Shown here: positions 1-8,762 of the stretch, piece by piece
Numbering within the stretch: the first letter of the stretch is position 1
How the letters are laid out: each line of letters begins with the position of its first letter
Assembly (NCBI GenBank): GCA_017941355.1
Contig: JAGAWN010000225.1
Coordinates: 1-49,279 of the forward strand
DNA from: Ruminiclostridium sp.
GTDB taxonomy: Bacteria; Bacillota; Clostridia; Oscillospirales; Ruminococcaceae
Reading direction: 5' to 3'
Length of the DNA stretch: 49,279 nucleotides
Translations under genes and position numbers: made by a program
Notes under the pieces: generated by a model
Seen by the model: the letters and a program-made list of their open reading frames with translations, nothing else
The model's database searches: none
Told to the model about the DNA's origin: nothing

Positions 1-26
1 AGGACGAAATGAGCTTGACATCAAGG

Positions 27-136
27 AATGTGTCCGTTGTTTAAATGCACCGCAGGCGCATTTAAACAACATCTGAAAATCTGTTTTGCAGATTTTCAGT
101 CAATAACTGCCAAAAGGCAGTTATTGAGGACACATT
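27..136. repeat. Cloverleaf palindromic element with three hairpins inside a closing stem
   Basis: Four perfect inverted repeats are nested almost without spare bases. The outer stem pairs aatgtgtcc (27-35) with ggacacatt (128-136). Inside are a 13-bp stem (36-48 with 58-70), an 11-bp stem (73-83 with 89-99) and a 12-bp stem (100-111 with 116-127). Only two bases (71-72) lie unpaired between stems. Either strand, or its RNA, could fold into a four-way junction. No open reading frame or transposase is associated. It may be a short interspersed palindromic element (MITE- or REP-like) or a structured RNA; the sequence does not decide which. It is not a simple terminator because there is no U-tract after a single hairpin. 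Confidence 0.85.
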
Positions 137-359
137 AATTATTATAACACTTTCCGTTTTATAATTCAACTGTTTTGTGAAAAATGTAATGATTTTGTAA
201 TAAATTGAATACGCGGAAAAGGGCTGAAAAAGGATCATTAGCTGTTCGGATATAATGCGGTCTTGCGCGGTTCCGGCGAAACGGTAAAACGTTTTTTGTT
301 GTACATGACTAAAGTGTGGATCGGTTTTATGTGCAGTGTGCCGAAAATGCAAAAAGCGC
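137..359. other. Gene-free AT-rich stretch
   Basis: Between the cloverleaf element and the padR promoter I see no convincing gene. Short open frames here lack a ribosome binding site and recognisable protein features. No clear promoter or terminator was found inside this stretch. Confidence 0.5.
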
Positions 360-388
360 TTGACATACTATGTCTGTCGTGGTATTAT
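360..388 (+). promoter_or_regulatory. Sigma-A-type promoter of the padR operon
   Basis: A -35 ttgaca (360-365) and a -10 tattat (383-388) are separated by exactly 17 bases. Transcription would start near 395, about 100 bases before the padR start codon. The spacer, the -10 box and the start region lie inside the large palindrome at 365-410. Confidence 0.8.
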
Positions 389-410
389 GATACTACGGCA
401 GACATAGTAT
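365..410. promoter_or_regulatory. Large palindromic operator over the padR promoter
   Basis: atactatgtctg (365-376) is repeated inverted as cagacatagtat (399-410). The pairing continues inward through 377-384 with 391-398, with two G-T wobbles, leaving a 6-base loop (385-390). ATGT/ACAT-type half-sites are known for PadR-family operators, and this one covers the spacer, the -10 box and the predicted start, so autorepression by the PadR encoded just downstream is the likely role. That role is inferred. Confidence 0.7.
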
Positions 411-7856: not shown

Positions 7857-8489
7857 TCAGTCCTTGCGGCGTATAGCTTTTGCAAGCGGTTTGTAGATGA
7901 AGAAAACGATGACCGAATCTATCATGAACTTCGCAAAGGTGAACGGCATATTGAACCATATCAGAGCGTCCCAGAGCGAACCGACACCGCCGTTGAGTTC
8001 CCTGTACATACCGATGATCGCGTCCATAGGCAGTCCGTAAAAGCTTTCATAGAACGGGTAGGTAATGTAGTAGTTGATGAATATGCTTGCCGCTGCAACA
8101 ATAACAGAGCCTGCTATCATAGCTATGAGAGCGGTGGTTTTGGTAGGCTTCACCTTGTAGATGAACCATGCCGGGATAACCATTACCGCGCCGAGCAGGA
8201 AGTTGCACAGCTCTCCCACGCCCGCGGACTGGGAAACGGCAATATGGATAAGGTTTTTGAGCAGGCAGACCGTGACTCCCGAGATCGGGGACACAAGGAA
8301 TGTGGCGAGGATCGCCGGCAGATCGGAGAAGTCGAATTTCACAAAGCTCGGAATGAAGAACGGAACCGGAAATTCGAGATACTGCAGTATCACCGATATT
8401 GCGGTGAGAATGGCAGTCAGGGTCAGGAAGCGCACGCTTCTTATGCGCTCGGTGTGTACCTTTGGTGTTGCTGATGTTTTTGCTGTCAT
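7857..8489 (-). CDS. ribU: ECF transporter S component, riboflavin-type
   Basis: A 210-residue integral membrane protein with about six hydrophobic segments, typical of the substrate-binding S component of energy-coupling factor transporters. RibU-like features are the N-terminal region after RFLTLTAILTAISVILQYLE, the FPVPFFIPSFVKFDFSDLPA segment and the LKNLIHI stretch. It would take up riboflavin together with a shared EcfA/EcfT module encoded elsewhere. Riboflavin as substrate is strongly supported by the FMN riboswitch directly upstream. The start is ATG at 8489 after aaaggag; a longer frame to 8540 runs into the riboswitch terminator. It stands alone, between a riboswitch and a terminator. 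Confidence 0.9.
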   Translation of the reverse strand: MTAKTSATPKVHTERIRSVRFLTLTAILTAISVILQYLEFPVPFFIPSFVKFDFSDLPAILATFLVSPISGVTVCLLKNLIHIAVSQSAGVGELCNFLLGAVMVIPAWFIYKVKPTKTTALIAMIAGSVIVAAASIFINYYITYPFYESFYGLPMDAIIGMYRELNGGVGSLWDALIWFNMPFTFAKFMIDSVIVFFIYKPLAKAIRRKD

Positions 8490-8514
8490 GGTGTAACTCC
8501 TTTCGTCGGAGGAA

Positions 8515-8546
8515 CAAAAATGCCCCGCTGCGCAACGCAACAGGGC
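8515..8546 (-). terminator. Riboswitch-controlled terminator before ribU
   Basis: An 11-bp stem (8536-8546 with 8522-8532, two G-T pairs) with a 3-base loop is followed on the minus strand by a T-run (8520-8516). It lies between the FMN aptamer and the ribU ribosome binding site, the position of an expression platform. Confidence 0.85.
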
Positions 8547-8573
8547 TGTACTTTCGTAAAAGCACTTTTGTTT

Positions 8574-8745
8574 CTTTCATCCGGACTATACCGTCGGCAT
8601 CGGAATCTCACCGATTCGGCGCACTTTCGTGCGTTCGCGGGCTTTATTGAAGTTACTGTAACGCGCACTTTTGTGAGCGCTTCAGGAGATCTTCAATGCT
8701 GCATCGTGCAGCACCGCCGGTGGGGAATCGCACCCCGCCCCGAAA
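8574..8745 (-). promoter_or_regulatory. FMN riboswitch (RFN element)
   Basis: Read on the minus strand, the conserved blocks of the FMN aptamer appear in order: ttcggggcggggtgcgattcc near 8744-8724, caccggcggt just after it, cccgcgaacgc in the middle, then cggtgagattccgatgccg and acggtatagtccggatgaaag at the 3' end (to 8574). Variable hairpins lie between the blocks, including one with gctgcacgatgcagc. FMN binding is expected to favour the terminator at 8515-8546 and so reduce riboflavin uptake when FMN is plentiful. Confidence 0.95.
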
Positions 8746-8762
8746 CACAATGTTGATTATTT

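What the first reader, a model, noticed from the sequence alone, without database searches (positions are those of the whole stretch)
27..136. Four-way-junction palindromic element built from perfect inverted repeats
A 9-bp closing stem holds three perfect hairpins of 13, 11 and 12 bp with only two spare bases. Such tight nesting of perfect arms is unusual for RNA leaders and suggests selection on DNA or a multiplying palindromic element. No transposase is present. It lies just upstream of a regulated operon. Seen: the pairings. Inferred: the role.
Basis: partly seen in the sequence, partly recalled or inferred. Interest (0 to 1): 0.75.

Follow-up and report, generated by a model that had tools for sequence, protein, structure and literature searches.

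The report
Mobile twin-cloverleaf repeat element
The palindromic cluster is the right half of a roughly 256-base-pair mobile repeat, made of two folded "cloverleaves", that has spread in many copies through some gut bacteria of one genus and often lies just downstream of the core sequence of a promoter.

Summary
In detail: window 27-136 is a 9-bp stem around three near-perfect hairpins, folding far better than chance (z -12.9). It is the right lobe of a ~256-bp repeat whose left lobe is cut off by the contig end. Complete copies have two four-way-junction lobes, each with three hairpins, ends AATGT...ACATT, and a 4-bp target duplication (52 of 70; 15.5 expected from shuffled flanks). Arms change by paired substitutions (96.4% of cells paired; 35-41% with partners slid). 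20 of 71 genomes of the genus carry it. In a fixed register 89 of 109 junctions are NATAAN and 39 are TATAAT, a strong preference; 15 of the 39 also have a near-consensus -35 box at 17 bp, not significantly more than intergenic TATAAT sites (p 0.13). There the element lies just past an intact promoter that would read it as a 5' leader. One such promoter is without the element in three relatives. Best reading: a non-autonomous mobile element (MITE-like) moved by an unidentified enzyme in trans. The role of the folds is unresolved; G-U/A-C counts show no sign of selection on the transcribed RNA. New variant of a known kind.

The parts
1..8 (+). Cut remnant of hairpin C (3' arm GGACGAA at 2-8) of the left lobe; the rest lies beyond the contig end
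   Evidence: Comparison with complete copies
9..21 (+). 3' strand of the left lobe's closing stem (ATGAGC 9-14, GACAT 17-21); its partner ATGTC/GCTCAT is missing here
   Evidence: Folds of complete copies; coordinates
22..26 (+). CAAGG linker between the two lobes
   Evidence: Present in the 40-copy alignment, (these bases were part of the search pattern, so their constancy is partly by selection)
27..136 (+). Right lobe: four-way junction with closing stem 27-35/128-136
36..70 (+). Hairpin D (arms vary between subfamilies by paired changes)
73..99 (+). Hairpin E (arms vary between subfamilies by paired changes)
100..127 (+). Hairpin F (arms mostly conserved)
137..140 (+). AATT, presumed right copy of the 4-bp target duplication; the left copy is not in the contig, so this is inferred from other copies
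141..169 (-). Promoter-like sequence in the flank: TTGAAT (169-164), 17-bp spacer, TATAAT (146-141), reading into the element
   Evidence: 2 such sites found in 520 bases, 1.5 expected from shuffles

Best explanation
It is a non-autonomous mobile element (MITE-like). A complete copy is about 256 bp, has no gene, and carries two lobes; each lobe is a closing stem around three hairpins. An integrase or transposase acting in trans, not identified, recognises the two unequal ends (left AATGTCTGCTCA, right inward AATGTGTCCTCA). It inserts the element in one orientation at NATAAN sites, TATAAT above all, and duplicates 4 bp. When the site is a promoter -10 box, the element lands just downstream of it, the -35 and -10 survive, and the promoter would transcribe the element, right end first, as a 5' leader of the next gene. 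Shown here: repeat family, ends, duplications, orientation, site preference, paired changes in the arms, and one site empty in relatives. Inferred: the enzyme, that the folds are needed as folded DNA (single strand or cruciform) during mobilisation, transcription of the element, and any effect on genes.
For: Copies: 54 BLAST rows in the window's own genome, counting partial and reverse palindrome matches; 20 of 71 genomes of the genus match the right-lobe model at E 1e-4 or better. Complete copies: 70, of which 46 are 250-262 bp, 22 shortened, 2 longer. Target duplication: exactly 4 bp in 52 of 70; shuffled flank pairs give mean 15.5, max 29 of 70 in 2000 shuffles. Structure: 96.4% of 1969 cells paired, 19 of 46 pairs changed on both sides; slid controls 35-41% paired and 2-6 such pairs. 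Divergent relatives in G019 and G026 keep two lobes of three hairpins with other arm sequences. Site, fixed register: 89 of 109 junctions NATAAN, 39 TATAAT; 39 of 89 against 336 of 2207 intergenic NATAAN sites, p 4e-10. Empty site: the promoter that holds a copy in G002 is without it in G011, G438 and G000; all four have TATAAT with a TTGTNN hexamer 17 bp away. Neighbouring insertions at one site, head to tail (L032, L064, L104, L132).
Against: No enzyme with matching ends was found. End patterns in G011 gave no long element with both ends, though 18 of 118 matches, of the one-mismatch kind, were not listed. Y1, rve and UPF0236 have no match in the window's genome; its one DDE_Tnp_1 match, a DUF772/DDE_Tnp_1_6 (IS1182-type, name recalled) gene, has no such ends nearby. 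15 of 70 complete copies lack a 4-5 bp duplication; L012 and L019 share a right flank but have different left flanks, so some are assembly joins or rearrangements. Promoters: 70 of 109 junctions are not TATAAT in the fixed register, and of the 39 that are, 15 have 5 or more of 6 matches to TTGACA at 17 bp against 88 of 336 intergenic TATAAT sites (p 0.13). A looser register gave 20 of 46 (p 0.02). In another count 72 of 121 junctions were neither promoter-like nor at the end of a long open frame. Many copies sit at contig ends of draft genomes.
Confidence: 0.85

Rival explanations
1. A mobile regulatory RNA: selection keeps the folds because the transcribed leader controls, stabilises or terminates the transcript of the gene downstream.
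For: In 9 of 10 promoter-type copies with enough flank, the nearest open frame on the left reads away from the element, so the leader would precede it (crude gene calls; 58 copies examined). Arms show paired changes. One weak terminator-like hairpin lies on the transcribed strand.
Against: If the transcribed strand were selected as RNA, broken pairs should favour G.U on that strand, that is A.C on the strand shown. Observed 32 A.C and 48 G.T distinct events. Most junctions are not promoter-like. The folds of both strands are alike, so DNA explains them equally well. No Rfam family matches.
Confidence: 0.2
2. A REP-type palindromic repeat moved by a RAYT (Y1 tyrosine) transposase acting on single-stranded hairpins.
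For: Many hairpin copies, and mini forms of a single hairpin.
Against: A 4-bp target duplication in 52 of 70. No Y1_Tnp match in the window's genome or in G034, both rich in copies; matches occur in 17 of 60 genomes, carriers and non-carriers alike.
Confidence: 0.03
3. The element is mobilised by a known promoter-targeting DDE transposase (TnGBS/ISLre2/ISKra4 type).
For: Those elements insert in a fixed orientation next to sigma-A promoters (PMC3942029, passages read).
Against: They insert 15-17 bp upstream of the -35 box; this one inserts at the -10 box, on its downstream side. UPF0236 (PF06782, the ISLre2-type family by recall) is found in 1 of 20 genomes, a broken piece in the carrier G448, and in none of the other 11 carriers searched (none of the 14 control genomes matched, so there was no positive control). 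ISKra4-type transposases were not searched.
Confidence: 0.05
4. Spread through an RNA copy: the host promoter transcribes the element and a reverse transcriptase re-inserts it.
For: The start of transcription expected from the -10 position would fall within the first bases of the element (inference from the sequence).
Against: Such starts would leave out terminal bases, yet the right end keeps ACATT in 63 of 70 copies. No reverse transcriptase was searched for.
Confidence: 0.04

Closest known systems
bcr1-bcr3 repeats of the Bacillus cereus group (BCR group A)
   Same: Short structured intergenic repeats in tens of copies, described as MITE-like, mobility tied to an AT-rich TTTAT motif, often part of UTRs (PMC6542083 and PMC3446304, passages read). 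Here the flank motif is NNTTAT.
   Different: Other lineage; no sequence comparison was made. A two-lobe architecture is not mentioned in the passages read; the original bcr papers were not held.
MITEs in general (Correia, RUP, ERIC, recalled)
   Same: Non-coding, multicopy, short inverted ends, short target duplication, enzyme needed in trans
   Different: Two nested four-way-junction lobes with covarying arms, loss of whole hairpins, 4-bp NNTT duplication at NATAAN; no parent transposon found
[quoted passage not shown]
   Same: Oriented insertion at a fixed place relative to sigma-A promoters, with unequal inverted repeats setting the orientation (PMC3942029, passages read)
   Different: They carry their transposase and insert 15-17 bp upstream of the -35 box; this one inserts at the -10 hexamer and carries no gene
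REP/RAYT palindromes
   Same: Palindromic, high copy
   Different: Target duplication present and no Y1 transposase match in two rich carriers

Membership tests
MITE (non-autonomous DNA transposon) | Short, multicopy, no gene | tested here: met
   256 bp modal length; 1 to 54 right-lobe matches per carrier genome, 54 being the scoring cap
MITE (non-autonomous DNA transposon) | Terminal inverted repeats | tested here: met
   Short: AATGT/ACATT exact in 62 of 70 copies; 10 of the first 12 bases of the two ends alike (counted)
MITE (non-autonomous DNA transposon) | Target site duplication | tested here: met
   52 of 70 exact 4 bp against 15.5 in shuffles
MITE (non-autonomous DNA transposon) | Parent transposon with matching ends | tested here: inconclusive
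   None found in G011 by end patterns, 100 of 118 matches listed; other carriers only partly examined
REP/RAYT | Y1 transposase in the genome; no target duplication | tested here: not met
   none in G000 or G034; duplications
TnGBS/ISLre2 promoter-targeting elements | Insertion 15-17 bp upstream of the -35 box and a p-MULT transposase | tested here: not met
   Insertion at the -10 hexamer; PF06782 only as a broken piece in 1 of 20 genomes
BCR repeats of Bacillus cereus | Sequence homology to bcr1-bcr18 | not tested
   No bcr sequence was fetched
Rfam RNA family | Match above the gathering score | tested here: not met
   Window: only an FMN riboswitch at 8565-8751. Three relatives: only matches below the gathering score; the ARRPOF hit does not follow the element's borders

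The most novel reading that the evidence does not exclude
A mobile element that homes to active promoters: its integrase recognises the melted -10 region or RNA polymerase itself and inserts the element so that the host promoter is kept and reads it. It would be a bacterial counterpart of promoter-seeking retroelements, with twin folded lobes serving as its recognition structure and an enzyme outside the transposase families tested here.
Probability: 0.1. Interest if true: 0.8.

Novelty: new variant of a known kind. Interest (0 to 1): 0.5.

Why it matters
A 256-bp twin fold has spread through part of a genus of gut bacteria without a visible transposase, preferring the TATAAT hexamer in an orientation that leaves a promoter upstream of it intact. 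It is a natural test case for how a transposition enzyme picks such sites and for how gene-free repeats can add transcribed leaders to many genes. Arms that change by paired substitutions say the fold itself is kept, which gives a clear design for bench tests.

Tried and rejected
Unique local palindrome or chance: rejected. Rfam RNA: rejected. The ARRPOF match on L036 (24.5 bits, gathering 127) covers a stretch that does not coincide with the element, so it is taken as chance.

Parent transposon: end patterns in G011, G034 and G002 gave pairs about 50 to 260 bp apart, mini forms down to about 46 bp, and ends left single by contig breaks or truncated copies; two single ends (L174, L175) look like chance. 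The listings were cut: G034, G002 and 18 one-mismatch places in G011 were not all seen. Transposase families tested: Y1_Tnp (60 genomes), DDE_Tnp_1 and rve (15 genomes each), UPF0236 (20 genomes); none tracks the element. No search was made for IS256-, ISL3-, IS66- or IS6-type families, Cas1 or reverse transcriptases.

'It targets promoters' in the strong form: weakened by my own controls. With the -10 register free (offsets 0-5), 46 of 109 junctions are TATAAT and 20 of those have a -35 of 5 or more matches, against 102 of 650 TATAAT sites at large and 88 of 336 intergenic ones (p 0.02). With the register fixed as in the controls it is 15 of 39, p 0.001 against all sites but p 0.13 against intergenic ones. 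32 of 121 junctions lie at the end of a long open frame, against 422 of 9125 control sites, so gene ends are a second niche.

RNA-strand test by G.U bias: not significant. The subfamily labels in that script were crude, and hairpin D is misaligned by one base in one subfamily, which lowers the paired percentage.

Selection in the data: complete copies were picked by patterns for the linker and both ends (up to 2 mismatches) and partly by an exact 18-base pattern, so the constancy of those bases is partly by construction; the arms were not selected on.

Wider distribution: 9 of 394 genomes of the order matched at E 0.01. Three belong to the genus; the other six had single hits. I viewed four of those six (L186, L188, L190, L191) and saw no two-lobe element; two (L187, L189) were not viewed. 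In one search, six listed contigs bear names of other groups (L082, L086, L093, L116, L122, L154); none gave a complete element.

Literature: searches turned up no description of this element in the held open-access library (listings, and passages of four papers); subscription papers are mostly not held, so this is no proof that it is unpublished.

Full report
OBSERVATION. As RNA, window 20-145 folds at -63.6 kcal/mol, against a mean of -22.5 for 200 shuffles, z -12.9.

WHAT IT IS. A BLAST of window 20-145 against the window's own genome gave 54 rows. These include partial copies and reverse matches of the palindrome. Many copies, the window's included, sit at contig ends, as expected of a repeat that breaks assemblies. 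Laid out with their flanks, they show that the lobe is half of a larger unit. A complete unit reads: 4-bp duplication; AATGTCTGCTCATCA; hairpins A, B, C; ATGAGCTTGACATCAAGG; AATGTGTCC; hairpins D, E, F; GGACACATT; duplication. ATGTC/GCTCAT pairs with ATGAGC/GACAT, so the left half is a second four-way junction (folds). As single-stranded DNA a complete copy (L043) has z -17.7. The window starts inside hairpin C, so only window 1-136 of the element is present here.

COPIES AND DISTRIBUTION. Most of the 85 stretches come from metagenome assemblies named Ruminiclostridium, Ruminococcus, Ruminococcaceae UBA3215 or uncultured Clostridia; several titles name a rumen or abomasum source. One viral contig also matched. 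A right-lobe model matched 20 of 71 genomes of the genus at E 1e-4 or better; among those at least 90% complete and at most 5% contaminated, 7 of 41. Matches per carrier ran from 1 to 54, the number of candidates scored per genome, with 34 in the window's genome. In the order, 9 of 394 matched at E 0.01, three of them in the genus; four of the other six were viewed and show no two-lobe element.

MOBILITY. Of 70 complete copies (after removing identical contexts), 52 have an exact 4-bp duplication, 3 have 5 bp, 2 have 3 bp, 4 have 1 bp and 9 have none. Shuffling left and right flanks among copies gives 15.5 four-base matches on average and at most 29 in 2000 shuffles, so the match is not just shared base preference. 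Because the next target base is A in 65 of 70, as is the first base of the element, a 5-bp reading cannot be excluded. Whole hairpins are missing in shortened copies, and two copies (L050, L089) carry the hairpin-A loop inverted. Head-to-tail neighbours share one site (L032, L064, L104, L132). For a copy in G002, the orthologous promoter lacks the element in G011, G438 and G000; TATAAT and a TTGTNN hexamer 17 bp away are kept in all four. One more orthologous region without the element was seen, with a diverged site.

STRUCTURE. On 44 right lobes (43 distinct), 96.4% of 1969 cells pair, and 19 of 46 pairs have changes on both sides. Sliding the partners by 1-3 columns drops pairing to 35-41%. 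Both-sided changes sit in hairpins D (10 pairs), E (8) and F (1), none in the closing stem. Junction bases and ends are nearly fixed, but the linker and ends were also the search patterns, so that part is partly by construction. Divergent elements in G019 and G026 keep two lobes of three hairpins with different arms. Departures from Watson-Crick pairing were 48 G.T against 32 A.C distinct events on the strand shown (p 0.09). That gives no support for selection on the RNA of the other strand, the one a neighbouring promoter would make.

SITE. Read towards the right end of the element, junctions have the form NATAAN. In a fixed register, one base before the element, 89 of 109 are NATAAN and 39 are TATAAT. 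Among NATAAN sites that is 39 of 89 against 336 of 2207 intergenic ones (p 4e-10). Of the 39, 19 have at least 4 and 15 at least 5 of 6 matches to TTGACA at exactly 17 bp. Controls: 157 and 102 of 650 TATAAT sites at large, p 0.002 and 0.001; 127 and 88 of 336 intergenic ones, p 0.22 and 0.13. Letting the register float over offsets 0-5 gives 46 TATAAT, of which 25 and 20 have such a -35; no other spacing from 10 to 25 exceeds 3 of 46 at the stricter level, and of the 63 other junctions 4 and 0 do. That looser set differs from intergenic sites at p 0.04 and 0.02. So the preference for the hexamer is strong, many of the sites are real promoters by their -35 box, and extra targeting of promoters as such is not shown. 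Another count with longer flanks had 121 junctions: 18 promoter-like, 32 at the end of a long open frame, one being both, 72 neither. In promoter-type copies the nearest left open frame reads away from the element in 9 of 10 (crude gene calls). One G026 copy and two of the G019 copies show a 17-bp-spaced promoter at the same place. In the window the promoter-like sequence is TTGAAT-17-TATAAT at 169-141 on the minus strand, four bases from the element. It faces off the contig, not towards the PadR gene at 493.

MECHANISM. Most likely an enzyme in trans binds the two unequal ends and inserts the element at NATAAN. The folds then matter for mobilisation as folded DNA; this last step is inference. 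The enzyme was not found: Y1, rve and UPF0236 have no match in the window's genome, and its one DDE_Tnp_1-type gene lacks such ends.

COMPARISON. It works like a MITE and meets the tested MITE features, except that no parent transposon is known. The B. cereus bcr repeats are close in style. TnGBS/ISLre2/ISKra4 elements also target sigma-A promoters, but 15-17 bp upstream of the -35 box, and REP/RAYT is disfavoured by the duplication and the missing Y1 protein.

One search repeated the promoter test in one register and lowered its strength; interest went from 0.55 to 0.50 and the probability of the promoter-homing reading from 0.15 to 0.10.

Noticed in passing
window 366-410: An inverted repeat (TACTATGTCTG...CAGACATAGTA) overlaps a TTGACA-17-TATTAT promoter-like site before the PadR-like gene at 493-813; it looks like the operator of that regulator (inference).
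   Followed up: partly
window 8565-8751 (-): FMN riboswitch aptamer (Rfam RF00050, 100.6 bits) upstream of an open frame at 7857-8540.
   Followed up: no
L050 and L089 (hairpin A): The loop of hairpin A is inverted relative to other copies while the arms still pair, as if the loop had flipped during replication.
   Followed up: no
L106 and L144: Two 324-bp copies carry about 68 extra bases forming further hairpins at the tip of hairpin D.
   Followed up: no
L166 876-921, L172 1426-1471, L178, L179: Mini forms of about 46 bp consist of one hairpin-F-like palindrome with right-type ends on both sides.
   Followed up: partly
L012 and L019: Two copies on different contigs share a right flank but have different left flanks and no target duplication: rearrangement or assembly join.
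   Followed up: no
L163 (IMG/VR contig, 1829-1846): One viral-collection contig holds the framework pattern; whether it is a phage copy or a host flank was not checked.
   Followed up: no
G000, G002, G011, G034, G448, G449, G450: Several carriers have larger assemblies (3.0-4.5 Mb) than most genomes of the genus without the element; not tested statistically, and assembly quality differs.
   Followed up: no
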